DNA from: Luteolibacter sp. Y139
GTDB lineage: Bacteria; Verrucomicrobiota; Verrucomicrobiia; Verrucomicrobiales; Akkermansiaceae
Assembly (NCBI RefSeq): GCF_038066715.1
Contig: NZ_JBBUKT010000006.1
Span: 186,001-250,000 of the forward strand
Length of the DNA: 64,000 bases
Direction: 5' to 3'
The notes under the pieces are model-generated. The model saw only the letters and a list, made by a program, of their open reading frames with translations. It ran no database searches and was not told the origin of the DNA. The stretch's first letter is position 1, and every line of letters starts with the position of its first letter. The position numbers and the translations under genes were made by a program. Positions 46,005-59,568 of the stretch are shown piece by piece.

Positions 46005-46368
46005 ACTATGGCAGGCCGAAAGTAGACGACAGGTTGTCTTACAACTCAAGCTCGGATTCCTAGCTCGATTGGGTAGGTAGGAAGGATTCTCAGAAAAGGC
46101 TGACGATTGCGCCAATCATCAGGAGTCCGACGAGGACCAGCCCGATTTTCCCTCTAGACTATTGCCCAAGCAAGCGGACTAGAAGGCGGCTACAAAATGA
46201 TTTGGACTTCTTAAAGTTCACAAATCTCAACAGGTGGTATCTAAAATCGAAATAGACCACAATATGTGGAGCTAATCCGGCCGGAAGCTTTCCCGTGGGG
46301 ATTTCCGGGTTACGGTGGCCGATGTCCGGAATCCCTCTCGGACTGAACCTCTAACCCGCTTCTGTCGC
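46005..46368. other. 364-bp AT-richer intergenic region with a possible gene remnant
   Basis: The region between the divergent dehydrogenase and smc genes is visibly richer in A/T than its surroundings, mainly at 46180-46270. On the minus strand 46090-46158 encodes 22 codons that read as a hydrophobic segment (KIGLVLVGLLMIGAIVSLF) ending at TGA. A TAG lies directly upstream and there is no start codon, so this looks like the tail of a lost small membrane protein gene. The smc promoter must also lie here. Confidence 0.4.
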
Positions 46369-49300
46369 ATGTATTTAAAATCGCTGGAGATGCACGGCTT
46401 CAAGTCCTTCGCGGACAAGACGCGTATCGAGTTCCACAAAGGAGTCACCGGCATCGTCGGCCCGAATGGCTGCGGCAAGTCGAACGTGGTGGACGCCATC
46501 CGCTGGGTGCTCGGTGAGACTTCCGCCAAGGCCCTGCGCGGTGGGGAAATGTCGGACGTGATTTTCAACGGCACCGAGAAGCGCAAGCCGCTCGGGATGG
46601 CCGAAGTGACCATGACGATGGCCGATTGCGAGGCTGCGCTGAAGGTGGACTACAACGAGGTCTCCCTAACACGCCGGGTCTTCCGCGATGGCAAGTCCGA
46701 GTACCGGATCAATGGCACGCTCTGCCGCCTGAAGGACATCCACGACATGCTGATGGATACCGGGATCGGCCGCACCGCCTACTCGATCATGGCGCAGGGC
46801 CAGATCGACCAAATCCTTTCCTCGAAGCCGGAAGAGCGCCGCATGGTTTTCGAAGAAGCCGCGGGCATCACCAAATATAAGCGCGAGAAGAAGGAAGCGC
46901 TACGCAAGCTGGAGTTCACCGAGGCGAACCTGCTGCGCGTTTCCGACGTGCTCGCCGAGCAGGAGCGCCGGATGAACTCGCTGAAGCGGCAGGTCGCCAA
47001 GGCGCGCCGCTATCAGGCGCTGGCCGGCGATGTGCGGATCCTCGACACTCATCTCGGTCACAAGCGCTTCGTCGAGTTCACCGCCGAGCGCGATGAGCTG
47101 AAGACTTCCATCCGCTCGCTGGAGTCGGCGGAGTTCGATCTTGAGCGTCAGATGGCTCCCAAGGAAGAGGCTGTGGCTGACGCCCGCCTCGATGCGCGCA
47201 ACTTCGAAGGCGAACTGGCCGACCTTCGTCAGCAGCTCAACGCCCATCGCAACGCGTTGTCCGCCGCGCAGGGTCGCGTCGCTTTCAATGAGGAGCGCAA
47301 GGCTGAACTCGAAGGCCGTATTTCCCAGAACCGCGAGGAGATCGAGACGACCCGTGATAAGCTCGCGCAGCAGGAGTTCGATGTCGTCGCGGCGAATGAA
47401 GCGCTGGAGCAACTCGCCCGCCGCATCGCCGAGCAGGAGATCCAACTTGGCGATCAGGAAGAGCGGACTCGGATGGCACGTGGCGGTCGTGAGGAGATCG
47501 AGGCCCAGCTCCGCGAAGCCCGCGCCGAAGCGAACCGCGCTCAGACGATCATTGCCTCCACGCAGGCGCGTATTGAAAGCTCGCTGGCTCAGCTTGAGAC
47601 CAGCCGGGAGCGCGCCCGCATGCTGGCGGATGAAGAGCAGCGCCTGAACCTCGAGATCGAGGAAGCGAATGAGCAGCGCAATCGCATCGTGGTGGAGTTG
47701 GAAGAGCACTCCGCGCGTACCGGCGAGCTGGAGGAGGCCTTCCAGAAGGCCGAGCGCACCTATCAGCACACCCGCGGCGACCTCGATGCCTCGCGCACCG
47801 CGGCGACGGAGGCGAACAAGATTTTGGCCCAGCGCGACTCGCGCCTGAAGGTTGTCCGCCAGCTTGTCGCCAGCGGTGAAGGCTTTGAAAAGGGCACCCG
47901 CAAGGTGCTCGATGGACTCGACGATGCCGAGCGCTTCAAGCCCGGTATCCACGGCGTGCTCGCCGGCTTCATCGAGGCCGACCGCTCCTGCGCTCGTGCG
48001 ATCGAGACTGCTCTCGGCAAGCACTTGCAAGCCGTTCTGGTTTCGGATGAGAAGCTCGCCGATGCGATCATCTCACGCCTTACCGAGAAGCGTCTCGGCG
48101 TGGCTTCGATCCTGCCAGAGTCCTTTGTCGGTCATTCGGTCAGCACCCAGATGGAAGCTGTGCCGGAAGGCGCGATCGGCTGGGCGCTGGACAAGGTGAA
48201 GTCTGATCCGCGTGTCGCCCGGGTCATCGAGAAGCTGCTGGAGAAGGTGCTCATCGTTCCAAATTACGCGACCGCGATGCGCCTGCGCTCGTCGTTGGCC
48301 GACGTGACGATGGTCACGCAAGCCGGGGAGCTGATCGGTGCCGAAGGCGTGATTCATGGCGGCGATGCCGGTGAAGGCAATGTTTCGGTCCTTGAGCTGC
48401 AGAACGAAGTCCGCGACCTTGAGACGGAGGTCGCAGGACTCGTCGAGGCCGAGGAAGCCGCCCGCCAGCGCGTGATCGATCTTGAGGCCTCGCTGTCGCA
48501 GCTTCAGGAAGAAGTCGAGATCGCCCGCGAGCGCATCCAGCGCCACAAGGTCGAGCTCTCCACGCTGCAAGGCCAGCTCACGCTCGCGACGCGCGAGGTC
48601 GAGAGCGTGCAGACGAAGATCGAGAACGTGCAGTGGGAACGCGGCGAACTTGAGAATCGTGAGCAGGCCGCGAACGACAGCCGCAGTGGACTCGAAAGTG
48701 AACTCGCGATGGCTCGCGAGCGTCTCGAGGGTCACGAGGAAGATCAGCGTCGCCTTCAATCGCAAGTCGAAGGTTCACAGCGCGACGAAGCGGAGCTGGC
48801 CCAAGCGCTCAATGAGCTGCGCACCTCGCTCGCCGTCGAACGCCAGGCGAAGCACGCTGCCGAAGCGCAACAGCAGCCGATGGAGGCGCGCCTCAGCGAA
48901 CTGCGCGAGCTTTCGATCCGCCGCGAGACGGAGATCGAGTCCTTCGTCCAGCGCATTGAGTCCGCCGCTGCGGAGAATGCGCGCCTCGCCGAGGAAGTCG
49001 AAACCCACCAAGCCGAGGCGGAAGACCTCGCGATGGAGATCGAGTCCCGCTCGGCTCGCCGCAACGAGTTGCTCGAAGCGATCGACAAGGCCGAGGCCGA
49101 ACTTTCCGAGGCCCGTCGCCGTCACGCCAAGGCTGCCGAGCAGCGCGGTCGCGAGGAAGTCGCAATTACCAAGATCGAGCTGCGCCTCGAAAGCCTGGTC
49201 GCTTCCATTCTGGAACGCCACCAAGTCGAGCTAGCTACCTTCGAGCCGGATGCGCATGCGTTGCTTTCCTGCATCGCTTCGCAAAAGTCGCAGCAATCGC

Positions 49301-50157
49301 GCGGCGGTCGCCAGAGCTTCGTGGAAAACGAAGGTGATGGTGAAGGCGAGGAGGATGAGCAGCCGATCATCGTCGTCGATGCCTCGAAGAGCAGCGACGA
49401 AATCGAGCTTCCGCCGCAGATGACCGGGGAGCCGGATTGGCAATTCGTCGAGGCCATCGTGGGCGACCTCAAGCGCCGTCTCGACGGCATGGGTCCTGTC
49501 AATGTCGACGCCATCGAGGAATACGAGGAACTCGAAGAGCGCTTCAACGAAGTCCGCTCGAACTACGACGACCTCGTCAGCTCCAAGGCGAACCTCATCG
49601 AGGTGATCGAGAAGATCAACGAGGAGACCCAGCGCCGCTTCTCCGAGACCTTCGCGCAGGTGAAGATCAATTTCCGGGATATGTTCAAGGAGCTCTTCGG
49701 CGAGAAGGGCCAGGCTGACCTGCTGCTGCAGGACGAGAACGATCCGCTTGAATCCGGCATCGAGGTGATCGCCAAACCGCCGGGCAAGAAGCTGCAAAGC
49801 ATCTCGCTGCTTTCCGGTGGTGAGCGCTCGATGACCGCGGTGGCGCTGCTGTTCTCGATCTACATGATCAAGCCCAGCCCATTCTGCGTGCTCGACGAAC
49901 TTGATGCGCCGCTCGACGAGTCGAACATCAACCGCTTCGTCAAGGTGCTGGATCGCTTCATCGATAACAGCCAGTTCATCATCGTGACCCACTCGAAGCG
50001 CACCATGGCGCGCGCCGACGTGATGTATGGCGTGACGATGGAAGAGTTCGGCGTTTCCAAGCCGGTGGGCATGCGCCTTACCAGCGCCGACGACGTGGCG
50101 AGCAAGGGCGAGGCGAAGACCGCCGCACAGAAAGCAGCGCTGCGACTCGACGCTTAA
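46369..50157 (+). CDS. smc: Chromosome segregation protein SMC
   Basis: SMC is the condensin ATPase that organises and segregates the chromosome. The 1262-aa protein has an N-terminal head with Walker A GPNGCGKSN (31-39) and a long coiled coil. A hinge lies at about 510-660 (PGIHGVLAGFIEADRSCARA, SDEKLADAIISRLTEKRLGV). A second coiled coil follows, then a C-terminal head with signature LLSGGERSMTAVALLFSIYM and Walker B FCVLDELDAPLDESN. An acidic insert (VENEGDGEGEEDEQP) near 995 is unusual. The ATG at 46369 starts the conserved MYLKSLEMHGFKSFADKT. A strong terminator follows; ScpA/ScpB are not in the window. Confidence 0.95.
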   Translation: MYLKSLEMHGFKSFADKTRIEFHKGVTGIVGPNGCGKSNVVDAIRWVLGETSAKALRGGEMSDVIFNGTEKRKPLGMAEVTMTMADCEAALKVDYNEVSLTRRVFRDGKSEYRINGTLCRLKDIHDMLMDTGIGRTAYSIMAQGQIDQILSSKPEERRMVFEEAAGITKYKREKKEALRKLEFTEANLLRVSDVLAEQERRMNSLKRQVAKARRYQALAGDVRILDTHLGHKRFVEFTAERDELKTSIRSLESAEFDLERQMAPKEEAVADARLDARNFEGELADLRQQLNAHRNALSAAQGRVAFNEERKAELEGRISQNREEIETTRDKLAQQEFDVVAANEALEQLARRIAEQEIQLGDQEERTRMARGGREEIEAQLREARAEANRAQTIIASTQARIESSLAQLETSRERARMLADEEQRLNLEIEEANEQRNRIVVELEEHSARTGELEEAFQKAERTYQHTRGDLDASRTAATEANKILAQRDSRLKVVRQLVASGEGFEKGTRKVLDGLDDAERFKPGIHGVLAGFIEADRSCARAIETALGKHLQAVLVSDEKLADAIISRLTEKRLGVASILPESFVGHSVSTQMEAVPEGAIGWALDKVKSDPRVARVIEKLLEKVLIVPNYATAMRLRSSLADVTMVTQAGELIGAEGVIHGGDAGEGNVSVLELQNEVRDLETEVAGLVEAEEAARQRVIDLEASLSQLQEEVEIARERIQRHKVELSTLQGQLTLATREVESVQTKIENVQWERGELENREQAANDSRSGLESELAMARERLEGHEEDQRRLQSQVEGSQRDEAELAQALNELRTSLAVERQAKHAAEAQQQPMEARLSELRELSIRRETEIESFVQRIESAAAENARLAEEVETHQAEAEDLAMEIESRSARRNELLEAIDKAEAELSEARRRHAKAAEQRGREEVAITKIELRLESLVASILERHQVELATFEPDAHALLSCIASQKSQQSRGGRQSFVENEGDGEGEEDEQPIIVVDASKSSDEIELPPQMTGEPDWQFVEAIVGDLKRRLDGMGPVNVDAIEEYEELEERFNEVRSNYDDLVSSKANLIEVIEKINEETQRRFSETFAQVKINFRDMFKELFGEKGQADLLLQDENDPLESGIEVIAKPPGKKLQSISLLSGGERSMTAVALLFSIYMIKPSPFCVLDELDAPLDESNINRFVKVLDRFIDNSQFIIVTHSKRTMARADVMYGVTMEEFGVSKPVGMRLTSADDVASKGEAKTAAQKAALRLDA

Positions 50158-50189
50158 CAGACAAACGGTTCTTCCGACAGAAGAGGGAT

Positions 50190-50242
50190 GAGGGACGGAG
50201 GGTAGACCCGGGTGGGTGTGCTTTCCGTCCCTCGATTTTTTT
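50190..50242 (+). terminator. Terminator after smc
   Basis: A 10-bp stem GAGGGACGGA (50190-50199) and TCCGTCCCTC (50224-50233) encloses a 24-nt loop and is followed by GATTTTTTT, a strong T-run. Confidence 0.8.
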
Positions 50243-50284
50243 GAGCTGTAGTGGCGGTCTATGACCGTTGCGCCAATCGGCCCT

Positions 50285-53008
50285 TCATTTCGCAAACGCG
50301 ATCAGCTTGCCGGTTTGGGTGAGGATCGCGAAGCCGCCGTTACCTCGCGAACACACCGCCAAGGGATCGCCGGCATCGCGTGGATAGGTCAGGGTGGCGT
50401 TGGCTTTTAGTCTAACACCTGGCGCATAGACTGATCCACCGCCGCGATGCGCGACGACGATGGAGCCGTCAGGCAAGTAGCACGTGGCAGGAGGGAGATT
50501 GGCAAGAGGATCAGAGAAGAGATTCACCGGCTCGGGGTCCTTGCCCGGCTTCGGGAAGTCGATCACCAACACTTCCCTGCCCACCGACACCAATGCCTCG
50601 AAAGTTCCACTCCTTGGAGAGAGGTGAAGGCTTGAAGGGCTTTCTCCCAGGCTCATGGTGGTGAACTGGCCGTCGGGAAAACGCCAGGCTACGAAGCCTG
50701 CGGTGGCGATGCAGAGATGGCCGCCGCGACCGGCGATGTGCCAGTCGAGTCCGGTCACATCGGGCGGTGCGAGGTCGATCGGGATTGCCCGTCGCAGCTC
50801 GGCCATCTCCGAGTAGATGTGGACGCACAGCGACGAGGTCGCGGTGTACTGCAGCAATGCGAAGTCTCCCTCGTCGCCGAATGGGCCTGCGGCCAGGATG
50901 CCGCGCAGTGTGCCAAGCGCGTCGTCGCCGGAATGCCTCACGCGGTCGAGCGCGCGATAGTGCAGGCGGCCGAATTTTGTAAAATGAAACAGCCGGCCGC
51001 TGCCACGCGCCGAGGTGACCGCCAGGTGCCGGACCGGCGAATCGCCCGGATCATCCGACGTTCGCAGCGCGGAGGTGTGGCAGCCATTGTCACGGAGCTG
51101 GCCGACGGCGAGCATCTCCTGGCCATAACCGGCGATGGAGATGCCCCTCGGCAGGGGCGCAATCGAATCCCAGCGGATGTGGCTGGAGACCGTGATGATC
51201 TGCTCCGGCTTCAGAGTGCCTGTGGGCGGGCCGGACTTGGGAACCCGGGGCGGGTTCTTCCGGATCGAATAGCGCTTGGCATCGCGCTGGAGCAGCAGGT
51301 CGTCAGGGTCGAGTTTCGGCAGGAAATCGAGCAGTGCCTTGCTGTCGTTACTTTGGGCTGTCAGCGCCTCGCCGATTCGCCGGTAGGCTTGCCTTTCCAA
51401 GGCCGCTCGCAACTCCGGGGTGTTCCAACCATTTGATTGTGAGAATCCGATTTTCAGCTTCGCATCCAAGGGTAGTGAGCCGACCCGATGTTCGAACATT
51501 GAGTCCAACAGATCCACGCTGGCGGTCAGATCATTGTCCTGGCGGAGGGTGCCAAACATCATCTGCAAGGCTTCTTCCGGACGGTTTCCGCTCTTCCAGG
51601 TCTGGTCTAACAACGCCAGCGCCGCCGGCCGGTCATTGAGCTTGGTGGCGAGCAGCCGTCCCTTTTCCAGCGGGTCACGCTGCGCTTCGAGTTCCGCGAG
51701 CCACATCTCCCGTGCTTCGGCGTGGTTGCCGAGTTTCGCGTGGAGGTCGCCGGCTTTTTCGAACTGCTTGGCTTCCGCATAGGCGGCGGCGGCCTGCAGC
51801 AGCAGGCCCGCGTCTTCCAGGCACTTTGCGGCGGCGGCGCGGTTATTGAGCTTGTGGAGGTAAATGGCCACGGCGTCGCGGTAGCGCCCCGCATCGGCCA
51901 GCGCCTTCGCCGCGCTGGCCCAATCCCCTAACAGATTTCCATAAATGTAGGCCGCGCGTTCATGGCGGCCGAGCGCGACCTCGCGCTTGGCGGCTTCACG
52001 GTACTGCCGCTCAAGTTTCAGCCGGGCGTCATTGGCGATGTCCCAGCCATCGATCGCTCCACCTCCATGGCCCATCTTGAAGCGAGCGTCTTTCATGCCG
52101 AGCTTCCACGTGGGGCGCGCGGTGCCGCGCGATTGTTCGATGCCTGCGAGAGGCAGCGCATAACGAAGCCCCTCATCGGGATTCGTTTCCATCAATTTCA
52201 TCAACCGATCAATCTCGCGATTGCGGCTGTCTGCGAGTTGCTCCCAATGCTTTTCGGCCCATTCGCGGAGGCGGTCGAGTGCTCCCGGCCCACCGGAATG
52301 GCGAGTGCTCCCGGGGCCATGGCCGCTCCCAAGCAAGCTTTCCGCCTTGCCAAGTGCTCCGATGATCCAGCCCGCGCCGAGCATCGCCCCACCAGCAAGC
52401 CCGAGTCCCAGCGTGGAGGCCTTGTCCATGAGACCGCTGCCGGGCTTGGGCAGATCCGCGCGGTCGCCGATTTCCTGCGCCGCTTCGTCGAGCATCGCCT
52501 GCGGATCGGGTGGCTCGGCGACCAGGATCACCTTCAACTCCGGCGCGAAACGACCCACCGGCACCGCATGGTTCCAGTAGGCTTCTCGTTCGGATGGCTC
52601 CTCTAACAGATTCGCCGGTGCCAGCTCATCCTTCGGATCGAAGCCGACCAGTCCGAGCGACGGATGGAAGAAGTGCAGCGTGTAGGGAAAGAAATAGCCG
52701 CGCTCATTGGGCGGCAGGCCCGCGGACAAGGCGGCATCGGCTGGCGCGTGGACGCCGGGCTGCAATTCGACAAGCTCCTGCACACGAGGCCGAAAGGAGG
52801 GAACCTTGCCGCGAGGTATGAGGAGGACGCCGGCAGCCCGTGGGTCCGAGGCCGACCGTGCTACCGGATAGAGAGCGACATCGGCCCCTTGTTTCTGGCA
52901 ATGCGCGACCTCTCGCAACCACTCGACCGGATCCGGCGACGCAAGCCATCCCGCCGACACCACGGGTGCCGGTCGCGCGACGCGGACGAGGGTGAGGGGA
53001 TGGGTCAT
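50285..53008 (-). CDS. bpX6-like protein: N-terminal domain, TPR-like repeats and beta-propeller
   Basis: The 907-aa protein is the last gene of the MoxR operon. Residues about 1-165 resemble the bpX6 domain of MoxR-vWA-beta-propeller systems (VVSAGWLASPDPVEWLREVA, VLLIPRGKVPSFRPR). A Gly-rich hydrophobic stretch follows at about 198-222 (LGLGLAGGAMLGAGWIIGAL), which may insert in a membrane. Then come basic amphipathic helices, and TPR-like repeats at about 330-440 (REVALGRHERAAYIYGNLLG, GRYRDAVAIYLHKLNNRAAA, KAGDLHAKLGNHAEAREMW). A beta-propeller with short WHIAGRGGHLCIATAG-type blades fills the C-terminal 300 residues. The start at 53008 overlaps the upstream stop by 4 nt (ATGA). No enzyme motif is visible; it is likely a recognition or scaffold subunit. 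Confidence 0.8.
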   Translation of the reverse strand: MTHPLTLVRVARPAPVVSAGWLASPDPVEWLREVAHCQKQGADVALYPVARSASDPRAAGVLLIPRGKVPSFRPRVQELVELQPGVHAPADAALSAGLPPNERGYFFPYTLHFFHPSLGLVGFDPKDELAPANLLEEPSEREAYWNHAVPVGRFAPELKVILVAEPPDPQAMLDEAAQEIGDRADLPKPGSGLMDKASTLGLGLAGGAMLGAGWIIGALGKAESLLGSGHGPGSTRHSGGPGALDRLREWAEKHWEQLADSRNREIDRLMKLMETNPDEGLRYALPLAGIEQSRGTARPTWKLGMKDARFKMGHGGGAIDGWDIANDARLKLERQYREAAKREVALGRHERAAYIYGNLLGDWASAAKALADAGRYRDAVAIYLHKLNNRAAAAKCLEDAGLLLQAAAAYAEAKQFEKAGDLHAKLGNHAEAREMWLAELEAQRDPLEKGRLLATKLNDRPAALALLDQTWKSGNRPEEALQMMFGTLRQDNDLTASVDLLDSMFEHRVGSLPLDAKLKIGFSQSNGWNTPELRAALERQAYRRIGEALTAQSNDSKALLDFLPKLDPDDLLLQRDAKRYSIRKNPPRVPKSGPPTGTLKPEQIITVSSHIRWDSIAPLPRGISIAGYGQEMLAVGQLRDNGCHTSALRTSDDPGDSPVRHLAVTSARGSGRLFHFTKFGRLHYRALDRVRHSGDDALGTLRGILAAGPFGDEGDFALLQYTATSSLCVHIYSEMAELRRAIPIDLAPPDVTGLDWHIAGRGGHLCIATAGFVAWRFPDGQFTTMSLGESPSSLHLSPRSGTFEALVSVGREVLVIDFPKPGKDPEPVNLFSDPLANLPPATCYLPDGSIVVAHRGGGSVYAPGVRLKANATLTYPRDAGDPLAVCSRGNGGFAILTQTGKLIAFAK

Positions 53009-55506
53009 CTCGTGATGGGGGAGGCGGAGTTGGATTTGAGAAATGCCAGCAGAAGTCCGGCCGACCATCCCTGGTCTCTCGTGGTGCCTGGGGGCATGAG
53101 TCGCGGGTCGATCGAGTCCAAACCGTGAGTGGGGATCCATGCGCTCGCGGCCGGGGTACTAAGAAGGATACTCCAAAATTGGTTGGGCTCTTGTGCATCC
53201 ATTTGCCGGAGGTGCAGGAGGCCTCGTGAGTCAAGCCATGCTTCCAAGCGACCTACCTGCGCGACTCGCAATGTGACGCCGCTGGCAGGAGAGTGATCGC
53301 TTTCCTTGAAGGCAGCAAATCGAGCCGGGCCGGCCTTCCCATTTTCCCAAGCCAATTTCCACGGGTTGAACTGATAAACGTTGCTGCCGCACATCAGGCG
53401 CAGCACGCCCTGCTCAATCGAGATCTGGTCCGGCGAAATGAGACGCGGCCACGAGCTATCGCGCAGGCTCCAGCCATCGAGTCCAAGACTGGCTTTCATG
53501 CCAGAGTCGAAGACGCGGATCGTTTCACCATCGAAGTCGACCACCGGATTGGCGGGCAGCTTGGCGACGGTGTTTTCAGCCACACGCCGGCCGGATTTCA
53601 ACGAGAAGGCCTCGGCTCGGTCTGCGTAGACGAGCACCACCGCGCCACCGCTGACTGCTGCATGGCGGGGGAAGGCGTGGAGAGAGGGTTCGATTTCGAT
53701 CTCTCGCAACTGCTGATCACGGAGGTTGAAGGCGCGGACATGGCCACCAGCTTGCTCGGCGGAGGCAATGACGATCTGCTCATCACCTGTCCCGCGACCG
53801 AGCCAATGCTGACGTCCGGGAAGCTTTCCCGGAACCACCTCCAATGCGCCCCATCCCGGCTTCGGCCATCGCATCAGCCGGTGGTCGAACGAAACCCCCA
53901 TGCCGCCTTCTTGATCACTGGCTCCCGCTCCATCCGGCAGATACGCTGAAGCTTGTGGGATCACGGGAAACAGGAACGGCAGTTGCTCTTCCTCATAGAT
54001 CGGCAGCAGACCGTGAAGTACATTGGCCTGTGCGCGTAGTGGTGGAGGGGCGGGCTTCTTTGGAAGCGGTTCGGCAGTCGGCGGCTTGAGGATCTCGGCG
54101 AGATCGATCATGCCATGGAAGAGCGTGTGATTGCCAGCGGGTGACCATGCCTGCACTTCGAGATTCCCCAAGCGATCTACGGCAACCACCTGGAAGCGGC
54201 CGGCCCGCTCGTGGATCCACCCGGCGATCTCGCCTAACAGCCTGCGTGTCGTCGCGTCCTCGAGATGCTCTTTTGCGGTGATGAACGAGACGTCAGGAAT
54301 CGCGACGTCATCGACGATCCGGGCAACATCCCACCAAGCGATGAGGAAGGCATTCGGCGAAGCTGCGGGCAAGAGCACTTCCAGTGCTGAGCGCACACCG
54401 GCGGGCGTGGACAAATCCAGAGTCTCGTAAAGGTCGGTCGTGGCTGCAACTCCTCCAAGGAATTCTCCTGGACCATTCAAAGCAGGGTGGTGCCACAGTC
54501 CGAGTGCGACTCCGAGCGAGAACACCCGGGCCGTGCCCCACAGCCGCAGACCGCGATCCAACAGAATCATGTGGCTGACCGCCACATGCTGCGGGGGGAT
54601 TTCGCGGCGGAAATAGAGAGCCTCGTTGTGAACCAAGCGGGCTGCGAGCACGAGATCATCCCAGGCGAGTTCGCCGGGGAGCAGGCGATCGATGGTGCCG
54701 CGGTTGGTGATGTCGGCGATTCCACCCACGGGCAGGTCGAGCGGCGCGCCGAAGCGGCCGGGGAAATTCATCATGGCGATCGCCCGCTTCGCCACCGCTG
54801 CTGCCGCGCCGCTTTCGCCGCCGGATGAAATGAGGTGGTCGAGCAACAGCCGGGGCTCGATGGGATCTTCCGCAAGTGAGGGAAGCAGCGGTTGGTGGAA
54901 CCCCGAATTCTCGATGCCCGTGCGAAGCAGGTTTTCAAGGCTCTCCGCCCCGTGGCGGGCAAGGCCGGTCTTCAACGCACGCAGGTCCCGCTGAAGACGC
55001 GCCTTTGCATCCATCTCGGGTTTCCTCTGGCTGGTATCGCCAATTCCAAAGACGGAGAGATCTCGCAACACCAGCTCGGACTCGGAGCGAGGCAGACAGT
55101 AAGGACCGCCCTCGAAGAGCGCGGACACCAGATGGCACTTCGCGGCCAGAGAGGATCTCAAGTCCCTTGGCAAGGCGTGGATTACATCGAGCCCCGTGAT
55201 GAGGATTTCGGCGGAGTCGGGGGGGATGGGATCGCTGTCGCGAATCTCCAAGGCTTTCCGAAATGCGCCATGATTCAGAGGCCGGTGAGCGATCCACTCA
55301 TCGCGGCATGCCGCCAAGACGAGCAGCACGGATCCGAGAGGCGGGACTCCGCTGTTGTTGCCGATGAAATCGAGGATCGTGTGAATCTCGGGCCACAAGG
55401 CGAGCGTCCGGCCATCTTTCCACTCGATCGCATCGTGTCCGCCACTCCACTTCCAGAAGTGGCCTTCGGGAGGGACCGCGTAGTTCGTGGTGCGGCGGGA
55501 GGTCAT
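53005..55506 (-). CDS. Degenerate vWA-like / beta-propeller protein of a MoxR ternary system
   Basis: The 833-aa protein has an N-terminal helical region, then at about 285-345 a segment with the look of the vWA part of ternary systems: NRGTIDRLLPGELAWDDLVL, NEALYFRREIPPQHVAV, then ILLDRGLRLWGTARVFSLGV. In active vWA domains the last strand carries the metal site DxSxS. Here the corresponding DRGLR lacks both serines, so metal binding is doubtful. The C-terminal 330 residues form a beta-propeller-like region (VLVYADRAEAFSLKSGRRVA, VVDFDGETIRVFDSG). No separate vWA gene exists in the operon, so this protein may supply that function. Start and stop both overlap the neighbouring genes by 4 nt. 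Confidence 0.7.
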   Translation of the reverse strand: MTSRRTTNYAVPPEGHFWKWSGGHDAIEWKDGRTLALWPEIHTILDFIGNNSGVPPLGSVLLVLAACRDEWIAHRPLNHGAFRKALEIRDSDPIPPDSAEILITGLDVIHALPRDLRSSLAAKCHLVSALFEGGPYCLPRSESELVLRDLSVFGIGDTSQRKPEMDAKARLQRDLRALKTGLARHGAESLENLLRTGIENSGFHQPLLPSLAEDPIEPRLLLDHLISSGGESGAAAAVAKRAIAMMNFPGRFGAPLDLPVGGIADITNRGTIDRLLPGELAWDDLVLAARLVHNEALYFRREIPPQHVAVSHMILLDRGLRLWGTARVFSLGVALGLWHHPALNGPGEFLGGVAATTDLYETLDLSTPAGVRSALEVLLPAASPNAFLIAWWDVARIVDDVAIPDVSFITAKEHLEDATTRRLLGEIAGWIHERAGRFQVVAVDRLGNLEVQAWSPAGNHTLFHGMIDLAEILKPPTAEPLPKKPAPPPLRAQANVLHGLLPIYEEEQLPFLFPVIPQASAYLPDGAGASDQEGGMGVSFDHRLMRWPKPGWGALEVVPGKLPGRQHWLGRGTGDEQIVIASAEQAGGHVRAFNLRDQQLREIEIEPSLHAFPRHAAVSGGAVVLVYADRAEAFSLKSGRRVAENTVAKLPANPVVDFDGETIRVFDSGMKASLGLDGWSLRDSSWPRLISPDQISIEQGVLRLMCGSNVYQFNPWKLAWENGKAGPARFAAFKESDHSPASGVTLRVAQVGRLEAWLDSRGLLHLRQMDAQEPNQFWSILLSTPAASAWIPTHGLDSIDPRLMPPGTTRDQGWSAGLLLAFLKSNSASPITR

Positions 55507-56240
55507 CGCTCGCTCCTTTCACGATTGATGCTCTCCGTCGTTCTTACTGCCGCGCGAGTGGCGGGCACCAGGTTCTCTTCATCCAGTTTCTCATGGCAGC
55601 CGTCGGGGTGGAACAAGGCCACGCGGTTGCGCCCGAGCTTCAGAACACCCTCTAACAGCTCTGGCCACGTATGATCCGGCAGCTTCCAGCCGCAGGGCAG
55701 CCACAGCTTGCCGATGGGGTAGAACGAGGCACCCGCGATCGCCGGCAACGGATGCCCTGTAACAAACACGCGGCCATCTTCCGCCGCCGCGAACCGCAGG
55801 CCTGCGAAGCGCGGCGCCAGCGCGCTATCCGCCCAACTGGCGAAGTCGGCCAGGCCGCAAAGCAAGGCACCAGCCGGTTGCATTTCGGCATCCGGCTCCA
55901 GGCGAAAGGACACCGCGGGCGGCGGCATTCCCGGAGCACCGCGCAGGGGTGGCGTGATGGCGATCACGGCGGCGAGCGTCTGCCAGCTATCTGCGGGTAA
56001 GAGCGCTTCGGCCACGAGTCGTCCGTCGCGGATGAGCCGATATTCGGAATCCATCGACCATCGGCCAACGAGCGGCAGCTTGCGGAACAGGTCTTCGTCC
56101 GCGGCCGGGACGCGCAGCCAGTGGAAGCCGGAGCCATTGCCCTCGTCACGCAAGGCCCATCCAGTCCGGTCGCGAAAGGCGGCCAGCACGCCGAGGTCGG
56201 CGGTGGCTATCCGGCCAACCCGTTGTTCAAGGGAGCTCAA
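55503..56240 (-). CDS. bpX-type partner protein of the MoxR system
   Basis: This protein of about 245 aa has features of the smaller bpX partners in MoxR-vWA-beta-propeller systems: FHWLRVPAADEDLFRKLPLV, RLVAEALLPADSWQTLAAVI, then VSFRLEPDAEMQPAGALLC, DGRVFVTGHPLPAIAGASFY and HDKL-like LFHPDGCHEKLDEENLVPAT. I cannot say which bpX number applies. A TTG at 56240 overlaps the MoxR stop as TTGA, matching the 4-nt overlaps elsewhere in the operon, so I prefer it to the longer frame that starts at 56270. No catalytic motif is seen. Confidence 0.65.
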   Translation of the reverse strand: MSSLEQRVGRIATADLGVLAAFRDRTGWALRDEGNGSGFHWLRVPAADEDLFRKLPLVGRWSMDSEYRLIRDGRLVAEALLPADSWQTLAAVIAITPPLRGAPGMPPPAVSFRLEPDAEMQPAGALLCGLADFASWADSALAPRFAGLRFAAAEDGRVFVTGHPLPAIAGASFYPIGKLWLPCGWKLPDHTWPELLEGVLKLGRNRVALFHPDGCHEKLDEENLVPATRAAVRTTESINRERSER

Positions 56241-57382
56241 TGTCCGGGTGCTTGAGTGACCTTTGCCCACAGTGTGGCTCCGCGTTCGGCAAGGGCGTCT
56301 TTCGCCACGCCAGCGGGCAGCCAGTCGAGGCGGCTGGCAAGGAGGCGGAGTTCATCAGCGGCTGCCGCGTTCGCCGGATCGACCGCGAGCTTCGCTTCCA
56401 CGTCGTCGAACCCGCGGGCGATGGCATCAGGATCCGGGGTGCGGTCGGCGCGTGATTGGGGATGATCCGCGACGTTGGCCTCGGCGCTCGCGAGCACCGC
56501 GGCGACGATCGATTCGATGACTTCGATTTGTTCCTCGCGATCCCACACATGGCGCAGCACCCACAAGTCGGACACACGGGCTGCAAGACGACCACACAGC
56601 AGGGCACTGGCGGCGATGACCCGCTGCAAGCGCACTGCGCGGCGATCGGAGATGTCCATGCCGGCGTGGCGCAGCTTGAAGACGAGATCGAGATAGGTTT
56701 CACGAACTGGCGAAAGATCTACCGATCGCACCGCCTGTTGGAATGTGCGAAGGTCGCCAGCGGTGATCGTCGCGGGAGGCAAGGCATCCGCTTGCTCCAA
56801 GTCCCAGCCCGCGGCGAGCACGCGGCCAAGCTGGCTTTCTTGGACCGGGCCGCAGCGGACGCGCAGCAGGAAGCGGTCGAACAAGGCGCGCAGGGCATCG
56901 TCTTCCGGCAAGTGATTGCTCGCTCCCGCGAAGAATAGCGCAGGGATCGCACGCGTCTCGCGACCGCGGCGGAAGATGCGCTCGTTCAAGGCCATCAAGA
57001 GGCTGTTGAGGATGGCGCTGTTCGCATTGAGCAGTTCGTCGAGGAAGACGATGTCGGCTTCCGGCAGCATGCCTTCGGTATTGGTGACCAGGTCGCCCTC
57101 GCGCAGTCGCCGGATATCGAAGGGGCCGAAGAGTTCGTTCGGCTCGGTGAAGCGCGAGAGCAGGTAGTCGAAGGTGTGGCCGTGAATGCGTGCGGCCAGC
57201 GAGTGAACCAGCGCGCTCTTCGCCGTGCCAGGCGGGCCGTAGAGGAAGAGATTCTCGCGGGCGGCAAGCGATACGCCCATGAGGTCGATGATCTCATCCT
57301 TGCCAACGTAGGCATTCTTCAGGGGATCGAGCACTTCGCTGGCGAAGCGTCGGGCGAGATCGGCGAGGGTATCGGGCGTCAT
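56237..57382 (-). CDS. MoxR-family AAA+ ATPase
   Basis: The 381-aa MoxR/RavA-like ATPase has Walker A GPPGTAKS (49-56), Walker B IVFLDE (111-116), sensor 1 in FFAGASNHLPEDD (Asn156), and the arginine finger in LFDRFLLRV (Arg170). SRFTEPNELFGPFDIRRLRE is a MoxR hallmark. The C-terminal 100 residues are helical. MoxR ATPases remodel partners that carry vWA domains. This one is followed by bpX-like and propeller proteins rather than a canonical vWA gene. It overlaps both neighbours by 4 nt. Confidence 0.92.
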   Translation of the reverse strand: MTPDTLADLARRFASEVLDPLKNAYVGKDEIIDLMGVSLAARENLFLYGPPGTAKSALVHSLAARIHGHTFDYLLSRFTEPNELFGPFDIRRLREGDLVTNTEGMLPEADIVFLDELLNANSAILNSLLMALNERIFRRGRETRAIPALFFAGASNHLPEDDALRALFDRFLLRVRCGPVQESQLGRVLAAGWDLEQADALPPATITAGDLRTFQQAVRSVDLSPVRETYLDLVFKLRHAGMDISDRRAVRLQRVIAASALLCGRLAARVSDLWVLRHVWDREEQIEVIESIVAAVLASAEANVADHPQSRADRTPDPDAIARGFDDVEAKLAVDPANAAAADELRLLASRLDWLPAGVAKDALAERGATLWAKVTQAPGH

Positions 57383-58116
57383 GATTCAGTGGCGGGTGAA
57401 AGGAGGCCGCGTCCCAACTCCGAGGTGTAGGCCCCGAGTTTCGAGCGGACGAAGGAAGCGATCGCAGGTTGGGCGAGACAGGTGGTGTCGGCGCGTTCGA
57501 GCGCGCGCTCGGCATAGGCTTGCCGTAGTCCGGTATGGGTGAGCACCGGGTGCTCGACTGCGAGGTGCATGCCGGGTGCGGACAAGGGGATCTCCTTTGC
57601 GAGATCATGCATGGCCTTCACCAGTGGATCGTCTTCCGAACGCGCGCGGGCCATGCGGTAGAGGTCCGGCCAGTGGCGCAGGCAGAGGTCCGCGGAAAAA
57701 TGAGCAGCGGGATCTTGTGAGTCCGGCAACGGCTCACGGCGGAGCAGAGCGACGATATCCGTCACCTCCATCTCGCGGAAGCAAACCAGGCAGGCCGCGC
57801 GAAATAGCATCACCGCACCCCACCATGCTGCGGCGGGATGGAACGGCAGGGGTGGTCCGGACAAGTCCAGCACTGCCTCCCGATGCCATCCCGCCAGCAG
57901 TTGAATGGCCTGCTGTCTTTCCCCAGCATCGTTGGCTGCCGCGGTCACCACCTTCGACCACTCGCGTCCGGGAGGCACCAGTTCGGCCCGGCCGGAATCG
58001 TGAAGGGACTGGAGAAATCGGAGCAGCACGCGGGTGAACGTCTGGGCGAATGCTGGCGGTCCCGCGGAAATGCGCCAAGCCGCAATTGGTGAAATGATAA
58101 CTCGATGGTTGGGCAT
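57379..58116 (-). CDS. Helical protein, first gene of the MoxR operon
   Basis: The 245-aa protein heads the operon; its stop overlaps the MoxR start (ATGA). It is predominantly helical (FTRVLLRFLQSLHDSGRAEL, AWWGAVMLFRAACLVCFREM, LCLRHWPDLYRMARARSEDD) and ends with VLTHTGLRQAYAERALERAD. In MoxR-vWA-propeller operons a small helical protein with a similar ending often accompanies the ATPase, but I cannot assign a specific bpX family. No catalytic motif. Transcription probably starts in the 104-bp gap shared with mnmA. Confidence 0.65.
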   Translation of the reverse strand: MPNHRVIISPIAAWRISAGPPAFAQTFTRVLLRFLQSLHDSGRAELVPPGREWSKVVTAAANDAGERQQAIQLLAGWHREAVLDLSGPPLPFHPAAAWWGAVMLFRAACLVCFREMEVTDIVALLRREPLPDSQDPAAHFSADLCLRHWPDLYRMARARSEDDPLVKAMHDLAKEIPLSAPGMHLAVEHPVLTHTGLRQAYAERALERADTTCLAQPAIASFVRSKLGAYTSELGRGLLSPATES

Positions 58117-58220
58117 CGATCGTTCCCTGGCTTTCCAAAGTCGTTCGTTTCGTGGTCCACCTTCTCCGCCTCCGAAAATTGGCGCTTGGCAGGCTGCGGT
58201 GCGTGCTTACCACTCCGCGC

Positions 58221-59303
58221 ATGGCGAAGGTGCTGGTGGGACTTTCCGGCGGAGTGGATAGCTCCGCCGCGGCCGCGCTTTTGATCGAGCAGGGCCACGA
58301 GGTTTCCGGGGCCTTCATGAAGAACTGGGTGAACGCCGAGGGTATTCCCGGCGATTGCCCGTGGGAGAGTGATTTGGAGGACGCACTCGCGGTGGCACGC
58401 ACGCTCGGCATCGAGTTCCGGGTGATCGATTTGATCGACCAATACAAGGAGCGGATCGTCGACTATCTGGTGGAGGGCTATCGCAGCGGGATCACGCCGA
58501 ACCCGGATGTGTGGTGCAATCGCGAGATGAAGTTCGGGGTCTTCCTCGACTATGCGCTGGAGCAGGGTTTTGAGAACGTGGCGACTGGTCACTACGCACG
58601 GAAGCGGACGCTTTCCGATGGCAGCCCGGCCATTTTACGTGGCGCGGATCCGAACAAGGACCAGAGCTATTTCCTCTCGCTGATGACGACGAAGCAGGCG
58701 AGCCATGCGATGTTTCCCGCAGGCGAACTGTTGAAGCCGGCGGTGCGCGAGGTGGCACGACGCTTCGGCCTGCCGACGGCGGAGAAGAAGGACAGCCAGG
58801 GGATCTGCTTCATCGGCGAGATCAAGATGAGCGATTTCATCAGCCACTACATTCCGGACAAGCCGGGGGAGATCGTCGATACGACGGGCAAGGTGATGGG
58901 TGAGCATCGCGGGCTGCACCTCTACACGCTGGGTCAACGCAAGGGCCACGGTGTGGCTTCGCCGCGCGAGGGCATGGCGTATGTGGTGGTGGGCAAGGAT
59001 TTGGAGCGGAACCGCTTGGTCGTCGGCTGGGATCTCGGTGAGACGCCCGGGCTCTATGCGAGGGAGTGTGTCGTTGGCAGTGTGTCTACCATCGGCAGCT
59101 CCTTGGATGGGCCGCAGTGGTTGGAGGCCCAGCCGCGCTATCGGGCAAAGGCGGAGCGGGCGGAAATCCGGCCGGGCGACGACGGCAAGCTGTTGCTCCG
59201 GTTTCAAACGCCGCAGCGAGCGATCGCTCCCGGGCAGATCTGCGCCTTCTACGACGGCGGCCGCTTGTTAGGCGGCGGCGTCTTCGAGTCGATCACGGCC
59301 TGA
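58221..59303 (+). CDS. mnmA: tRNA-specific 2-thiouridylase MnmA
   Basis: MnmA thiolates U34 of tRNA-Gln, -Lys and -Glu. The 360-aa protein has the PP-loop SGGVDSS (9-15). The two catalytic cysteines are Cys99 in NPDVWCNREMKF and Cys196 in DSQGICFIGE, and the KDQSYFLSLMTTKQ motif is present. The C-terminal barrel has LYTLGQRKGHGVASPREGM. The ATG at 58221 gives MAKVLVGLSGG; the longer in-frame start at 58152 adds non-conserved basic residues. It is divergent from the MoxR operon. One tRNA-Gln(TTG) gene, a substrate, is in this window. Confidence 0.95.
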   Translation: MAKVLVGLSGGVDSSAAAALLIEQGHEVSGAFMKNWVNAEGIPGDCPWESDLEDALAVARTLGIEFRVIDLIDQYKERIVDYLVEGYRSGITPNPDVWCNREMKFGVFLDYALEQGFENVATGHYARKRTLSDGSPAILRGADPNKDQSYFLSLMTTKQASHAMFPAGELLKPAVREVARRFGLPTAEKKDSQGICFIGEIKMSDFISHYIPDKPGEIVDTTGKVMGEHRGLHLYTLGQRKGHGVASPREGMAYVVVGKDLERNRLVVGWDLGETPGLYARECVVGSVSTIGSSLDGPQWLEAQPRYRAKAERAEIRPGDDGKLLLRFQTPQRAIAPGQICAFYDGGRLLGGGVFESITA

Positions 59304-59568
59304 GCGTCGCGAATCGCGACACCAGAAAGAAAGGGGAAACCGCTGTGCCGTCCTAGGAGCTGAGAGCCACGTTCCAGTTGCTCAACAAGTGGGAGTTCCG
59401 ATCCTGGTAGGTTGTCCTGAGAAGGCATAACCCGTATTCCGGATTCGGTTTGATCTCCCCGTTTTAATACATCGGTCCGGGCATGCTACCTTTTGTGGCG
59501 AACACAGCAGTCGGGGGTGATTCTATGCCGCCAGCGGGTGCTGGCAACCCATTTCATGAAGAGAAGCA
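59304..59568. other. Intergenic region between mnmA and the exonuclease gene
   Basis: 265 nt without a gene. It contains a hairpin GCCAGC/GCTGGC at 59531-59546 without a T-run; nothing else is recognisable. Confidence 0.4.

What the first reader, a model, noticed from the sequence alone, without database searches (positions are those of the whole stretch)
50285..58116. Five-gene MoxR-vWA-beta-propeller (bpX) operon
Five minus-strand genes are joined by four 4-base overlaps (57379, 56237, 55503, 53005). They encode a MoxR ATPase, a bpX6-like TPR/propeller protein, a vWA-like/propeller protein and two smaller partners. Established knowledge: Kaur, Burroughs, Iyer and Aravind described MoxR-vWA-beta-propeller ternary systems as NTP-dependent conflict systems with domains named bpX0 to bpX6. 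The present set is compact and lacks a stand-alone vWA gene. A role in defence or self-recognition is an inference.
Basis: partly seen in the sequence, partly recalled or inferred. Interest (0 to 1): 0.75.

Follow-up and report, generated by a model that had tools for sequence, protein, structure and literature searches.

The report
Known bpX MoxR–vWA–propeller operon, textbook member
Five tightly packed bacterial genes encode a known but untested ATP-driven protein-remodelling machine; this copy is an ordinary member of that family, and it helps show which part of the partner protein the motor probably grips.

Summary
In detail: five minus-strand genes at 50285-58116 are joined by 4-base overlaps. 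All five match the Pfam families of the beta-propeller MoxR-vWA ternary system of Kaur et al. 2020: bpX4, bpMoxR, bpX2, bpX0(+bpX1), bpX3. "No stand-alone vWA gene" is the family rule, because the vWA is fused to the propeller. The same gene order occurs complete in 40 of 55 loci from three phyla. This is a textbook member.

Extra detail: the operon sits between smc and mnmA, which adjoin in the two closest species. It is rare: 6 of 195 family genomes, 4 of 384 in the phylum. Its vWA-like domain has a broken MIDAS in all 44 relatives. The most conserved stretch of that protein (residues 249-304) lies where NorD carries the finger that enters the NorQ pore. bpX2 and bpX3 are probably related.

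A defence role is not shown. I found no defence island, phage copy or recognisable toxin, one plasmid copy, and a phylum-structured tree. ATP-driven remodelling through a finger in the pore is the likeliest mechanism.

The parts
57379..58116 (-). P1, bpX4 protein (245 aa)
   Evidence: Pfam PF19920 E=9.3e-41; invariant D143, L197, R204 in 43 sequences, no obvious catalytic motif
56237..57382 (-). P2, bpMoxR AAA+ ATPase (381 aa)
   Evidence: Pfam PF20030 E=5.5e-95; Walker A GPPGTAKS, Walker B VFLDEL, GASN sensor 1 and FDRF arginine-finger region conserved across three phyla
55503..56240 (-). P3, bpX2 protein; TTG start at 56240 gives the 4-bp overlap, GTG at 56270 is the alternative
   Evidence: Pfam PF19918 E=1.6e-35; start read
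53005..55506 (-). P4, vWA component (833 aa): bpX0 helical N-terminus, conserved pre-vWA block, vWA-like domain, beta-propeller, bpX1 C-terminus
   Evidence: Pfam bpX0 1.4e-12, bpX1 0.0099 with bpX1 hit in 41 of 44 homologues; AlphaFold2 model mean pLDDT 82.9; fold matches
54595..54762 (-). P4 residues 249-304: most conserved block of P4, placed like the NorD finger that enters the NorQ pore (proposed pore finger)
   Evidence: mean pairwise identity 0.525 against 0.244 for the whole protein, next best non-overlapping window 0.351; NorD finger is residues 403-448, start of its VWA
54082..54582 (-). P4 residues 309-475: vWA-like domain with degenerate MIDAS (D317 kept; G/T at 319 and R/K at 321 for the serines; T410 for the strand-4 Asp)
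   Evidence: column counts in 44 sequences; fold match to NorD (PDB 9qhe_G) Z 8.6, 137 aligned; weak profile match to vWA proteins, E 0.0062
50285..53008 (-). P5, third component (907 aa from ATG 53008): bpX3 N-terminal domain, low-confidence hydrophobic Gly-rich linker, TPR-like solenoid, WD40-type propeller
   Evidence: Pfam bpX3 1.3e-23; model mean pLDDT 81.9; propeller Z 25.4 to Ski8; TPR/clathrin-type solenoid hits in homologues
50269..58170 (.). Extent of sequence absent from the smc-mnmA intergenic region of the closest relatives (junctions approximate)
   Evidence: G039 aligns to window 48943-50268 and 58171-59305 with 101 bp between; G101 to 48994-50240 and 58202-59290

Best explanation
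This is a complete beta-propeller MoxR-vWA ternary system (bpX4, bpMoxR, bpX2, bpX0-vWA-propeller-bpX1, bpX3-TPR-propeller). Shown by sequence: family membership, intact ATPase motifs, conserved gene order and a degenerate MIDAS. Inferred mechanism: bpMoxR forms a hexamer; the strongly conserved segment just before the vWA-like domain of P4 (residues 249-304) enters the pore as the NorD finger does in NorQ; ATP hydrolysis rotates the vWA-like domain and pulls on the rest of P4. Because the MIDAS is broken, the client is probably held by the propeller and N-terminal regions and not by a metal-bridged contact. P5, docked through its solenoid and propeller, is the most likely client or output subunit, with P1 and P3 as adaptors. 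Its purpose is probably a switch held off until a trigger, as Kaur et al. propose; an antiviral purpose is one possibility and is not established.
For: All five Pfam matches. All five genes in the same order in 40 of 55 genome loci of Verrucomicrobiota, Planctomycetota and Bacteroidota (most others end at a contig edge). No flanking family recurs across phyla, so the five genes are the unit. Walker A/B, sensor 1 and arginine-finger regions intact. P4 vWA-like region matches NorD of the NorQD complex (9qhe_G, Z 8.6, rmsd 3.5, 137 residues); weak independent profile match to MoxR-linked vWA proteins, E 0.0062, and to ivWA of FtsH ternary systems in 7 of 44 (best 0.049). Residues 249-304 are by far the most conserved part of P4 and lie where NorD has its pore finger (residues 403-448, PMC13036017). 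MIDAS loss. MoxR dN 0.09 against 0.25-0.32 for partners at similar dS in the nearest same-genus copy.
Against: No experiment on any member was found. The finger block has low to middling model confidence (pLDDT 38-80), and its placement rests on position and conservation, not on a modelled complex. NorD Z of 8.6 is near the level that can mean a common arrangement. No effector domain is recognised. Faster change in partners was not tested for positive selection and can mean relaxed constraint.
Confidence: 0.6

Rival explanations
1. Antiviral or other conflict system: infection triggers ATP-dependent rearrangement that releases the P5 N-terminal region (bpX3) as an effector near the membrane.
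For: Kaur et al. propose it. Sparse occurrence: 6 of 195 family genomes, 4 of 384 in the phylum. Empty site in the two closest species, and no shared flank in the same-genus relative G125. Partners have about three times the dN of MoxR.
Against: PADLOC hits in flanking genes are few (top families in 1-2 of 132 proteins; no background control was run). One plasmid hit in 72,556 records, no phage hit. The MoxR tree largely follows phylum (3 changes, minimum 2). Only 11 of 40 P5 homologues have a strongly hydrophobic segment, so membrane anchoring is not general. The bpX3 domain is not unusually variable (pairwise identity 0.19-0.30; propeller 0.13-0.21). The window copy sits between housekeeping genes.
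Confidence: 0.35
2. Dedicated assembly or maturation chaperone, like RavA-ViaA, NorQD or CbbQO, for a cellular complex unrelated to conflict.
For: MoxR-vWA pairs with tested functions are assembly factors (PMC13036017, PMC9976466). MoxR matches the RavA NCBIfam model at 1.8e-48, below that model's cut-off. Strong purifying selection on MoxR; phylum-structured tree.
Against: No client enzyme or other gene is linked across phyla. The MIDAS used by NorD for its client is lost. Presence is too sparse for a core function.
Confidence: 0.3
3. Self-recognition or contact-dependent social system linked to aggregation.
For: Kaur et al. report a modest excess in multicellular bacteria for the propeller systems (44 of 118, P=0.0094).
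Against: No recurrent surface or exported partner is linked; the association is far weaker than for VMAP systems. Secretion signals were not examined.
Confidence: 0.08

Closest known systems
Beta-propeller MoxR-vWA ternary systems (Kaur, Burroughs, Iyer, Aravind 2020, eLife 9:e52696, subsystem 4; Pfam bpMoxR, bpX0-bpX6)
   Same: All five products match bpX4, bpMoxR, bpX2, bpX0(+bpX1) and bpX3; variant P-loop TAKS; vWA fused to propeller; TPR-propeller third component; phyla as described
   Different: No hydrophobic stretch as clear as in the Bacteroidota P5 proteins; bpX1 match in the window copy is below Pfam's cut-off
NorQ/NorD (MoxR AAA+ and VWA partner of nitric oxide reductase)
   Same: MoxR-class ATPase with a vWA-fold partner; conserved segment directly before the vWA in the place of the NorD pore finger
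   Different: MIDAS broken here; added bpX0, propeller, bpX2, bpX4 and bpX3-TPR-propeller parts; no linked metalloenzyme
RavA/ViaA
   Same: RavA-like AAA+ core (NCBIfam RavA 1.8e-48, under its cut-off)
   Different: The match covers only residues 18-303 of the 498-residue RavA model; different partners
FtsH ternary systems (Kaur et al. subsystem 3)
   Same: Weak hits to its degenerate vWA type (ivWA, 7 of 44, best 0.049) and to fvmX7 in 3 of 45 bpX2 proteins (best 0.0073)
   Different: No FtsH-like protein in the operon

Membership tests
Beta-propeller MoxR-vWA ternary system | bpMoxR ATPase | tested here: met
   PF20030 E=5.5e-95, 316.7 bits against a cut-off of 27; other MoxR paralogues of the genome score at most 56.5 bits
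Beta-propeller MoxR-vWA ternary system | vWA component with a propeller C-terminal to the vWA | tested here: met
   bpX0 1.4e-12; model and fold search show vWA-like fold then propeller blades; NorD match Z 8.6 is moderate; bpX1 below cut-off in this copy but hit in 41 of 44 homologues
Beta-propeller MoxR-vWA ternary system | third component with N-terminal domain, TPR region and propeller | tested here: met
   bpX3 1.3e-23; solenoid 355-611 and propeller 626-934 of the trimmed model, Z 25.4
Beta-propeller MoxR-vWA ternary system | membrane-spanning segment in the third component | tested here: inconclusive
   best 19-residue hydropathy 1.56 in the window protein; 11 of 40 homologues reach 1.6, clear cases are mostly Bacteroidota
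Beta-propeller MoxR-vWA ternary system | P-loop variant GXXXTAKS | tested here: met
   GPPGTAKS
Beta-propeller MoxR-vWA ternary system | biological conflict role | not testable with these tools
   needs phage challenge or activation assays
NorQD/RavA-type metal-insertion or assembly chaperone | intact MIDAS (DxSxS-T-D) in the vWA partner | tested here: not met
   serines absent in all 44 sequences and the strand-4 Asp position mostly Thr (37 of 44)
NorQD/RavA-type metal-insertion or assembly chaperone | finger before the vWA that enters the AAA+ pore | tested here: inconclusive
   most conserved block is at the right place; no complex was modelled
VMAP ternary system | VMAP protein | tested here: not met
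   no Pfam match other than bpX families for the four non-ATPase proteins at E up to 1

The most novel reading that the evidence does not exclude
The bpX machine is a MoxR motor that has dropped the metal-dependent grip of ordinary vWA partners: it keeps the pore finger but holds its client through propellers and a bpX2/bpX3 pair of related domains, so that P5 is both client and output. [quoted passage not shown]
Probability: 0.25. Interest if true: 0.55.

Novelty: new member of a known kind. Interest (0 to 1): 0.33.

Why it matters
The propeller systems have, as far as I could find, been described only by comparative genomics. Fixing their five-gene unit, the broken MIDAS and a candidate pore finger turns a list of domain names into testable contacts. 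Finding out what the machine remodels would also decide whether this branch is immunity at all.

Tried and rejected
bpX6 label for P5: only one of 40 homologues hits bpX6, at 0.031. A novel fusion or missing vWA gene: the vWA is inside P4. Defence island: flanking proteins gave scattered PADLOC hits (RtcR-like, Cas1, RT), no recurrent one. Extra recurring partner gene: none across phyla; the DUF1501 and PSD1/PSCyt neighbours in a few planctomycete and verrucomicrobial loci are common gene families there, and I took them as background. Sequence relatives of P4 in the PDB: none significant (BamB at 0.052). Composition anomaly marking recent transfer: GC 0.63-0.65 in the operon, like its surroundings. 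Promoter scan: nothing found. Internal duplication inside bpX2: weak (E 0.0012), not claimed. Transfer between phyla: the tree does not demand it. Literature search for bpMoxR/bpX gave no experimental paper.

Full report
What is there. Five minus-strand ORFs lie at 50285-58116. With the starts that fit best (TTG 56240 for P3, ATG 53008 for P5) all four junctions are 4-base overlaps (starts of P5 homologues). Upstream is mnmA, divergent; downstream is smc, convergent. The smc terminator-like hairpin is shared with relatives that lack the operon.

What it is. Each product matches one family of the published beta-propeller MoxR-vWA system: P1 bpX4 (9.3e-41), P2 bpMoxR (5.5e-95), P3 bpX2 (1.6e-35), P4 bpX0 (1.4e-12) with weak bpX1 (0.0099), P5 bpX3 (1.3e-23). 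PADLOC-DB has no meaningful match. Kaur et al. (PMC7159879) describe a MoxR, a vWA protein that always carries a propeller, a third protein with a variable N-terminal region, TPRs and a propeller, and extra conserved small proteins. The window matches that description, so the missing stand-alone vWA gene is expected.

Conservation. A scan of GTDB genomes gave 55 close loci. In 40 all five genes stand in the same order on one strand; most others end at a contig edge. Real exceptions are L087 (rearranged), L088 (MoxR without detected partners), and L052, L069 and L099 (one or more partners not detected). All 44 P4 sequences hit bpX0 and 41 hit bpX1; all 40 P5 sequences hit bpX3; all 45 P3 sequences hit bpX2. 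Flanking genes are not shared across phyla, so the five genes are the unit.

Distribution. A high-scoring bpMoxR (over 300 bits) occurs in 6 of 195 genomes of the family, and a strict profile match in 4 of 384 of the phylum. The window's genome has 13 other matches to the bpMoxR model, all far weaker (at most 56.5 bits). In the two closest species smc and mnmA adjoin, with about 267 bp (G039) and 372 bp (G101) between the matched ends, and the aligned flanks resume on both sides of the operon. In the same-genus copy of G125, no flank of that locus matches the window outside the operon, so it lies elsewhere. The operon was gained here or lost there; the data do not say which. The MoxR tree follows phylum with 3 changes against a minimum of 2, so transfer between phyla is not demanded. 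Only one of 72,556 plasmid records and no phage record has a P4 relative.

Rates. Between the window and G125, dN is 0.09 for MoxR and 0.25-0.32 for the four partners, with dS 1.0-1.5 for all; mnmA for the same pair has dN 0.09 and dS 0.79. dS this high is near saturation. Partners are less constrained or change faster; no test of positive selection was made.

P4 anatomy. The model (mean pLDDT 82.9, pTM 0.51) has a helical N-terminus, an alpha/beta domain at about 309-475 and propeller blades to about 800. VIA-align gives NorD of the NorQD complex (9qhe_G, model 237-472, Z 8.6, 137 residues) and integrin alpha-X (vWA plus propeller) among propeller rows. A profile of vWA proteins encoded next to MoxR paralogues aligns in register, E 0.0062. 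In 44 sequences the first MIDAS aspartate is kept in 43, the two serine positions hold mostly G/T and R/K, and the strand-4 aspartate position is mostly Thr (37 of 44). Kaur et al. noted loss of one or both aspartates in some members; here the loss pattern is nearly uniform.

The pore-finger proposal. Residues 249-304 have a mean pairwise identity of 0.525, against 0.244 overall and 0.351 for the next best window, in 38 rows under 75% identity. In NorD, residues 403-448 at the start of the VWA domain form the finger that inserts into the NorQ pore (PMC13036017), and earlier work suggests this for all MoxR/VWA couples (PMC9976466). The match of place and conservation supports the same use here; it is an inference, and the model is not confident in this block.

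P5 anatomy. bpX3 at residues 33-204 of the trimmed protein, a low-confidence Gly-rich hydrophobic stretch, a helical solenoid (355-611) and a propeller (626-934; Z 25.4 to Ski8). Strong hydrophobic segments occur in 11 of 40 relatives, most clearly in Bacteroidota, so a membrane anchor is not general.

bpX2 and bpX3. The C-terminal half of bpX2 and the bpX3 domain align at E 1.4e-5 (probability 80%); 100 column shuffles gave a best P of 0.014, and 20 half-size subsets gave E from 8.7e-6 to 0.0024. Among 45 domain pairs compared, the only other non-overlapping pairs under 0.02 were propeller-propeller (0.002) and vWA-vWA (0.006). Kinship is probable; whether Pfam already groups them was not checked, and structures of P3 were not predicted.

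Function. Shown: family, intact ATPase motifs, unit of five, broken MIDAS. Inferred: finger-in-pore remodelling of P4 and P5. Open: the trigger, the client and the purpose. Defence is possible but had little direct support from the tests available.

Noticed in passing
50247-50267: One arm of a palindromic repeat (TGTAGYGGCGGTCTNNGACCG) lies at the operon's left junction. The empty site of relative G039 holds a full palindrome there; the arm occurs 16 times in G039 and 6 times in the window's genome at up to 2 mismatches. Its part in gain or loss of the operon is unknown.
   Followed up: partly
whole genome of the window (G000): Twelve MoxR genes over the AAA_3 cut-off, several next to vWA genes with intact DxSxS: a large MoxR set for one bacterium.
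   Followed up: no
L046:7357-7902: A T4 gp19-like tail tube protein gene lies about 1.4 kb upstream of the operon in this relative.
   Followed up: no
L052:7224-9194: A reverse transcriptase gene lies directly upstream of a bpX4-bpMoxR pair whose other three partners were not detected; ABC transporter genes follow. It may be a disrupted operon.
   Followed up: partly
46315-59303: smc and mnmA adjoin in the window's two closest species but lie apart in the other members of the genus examined.
   Followed up: no
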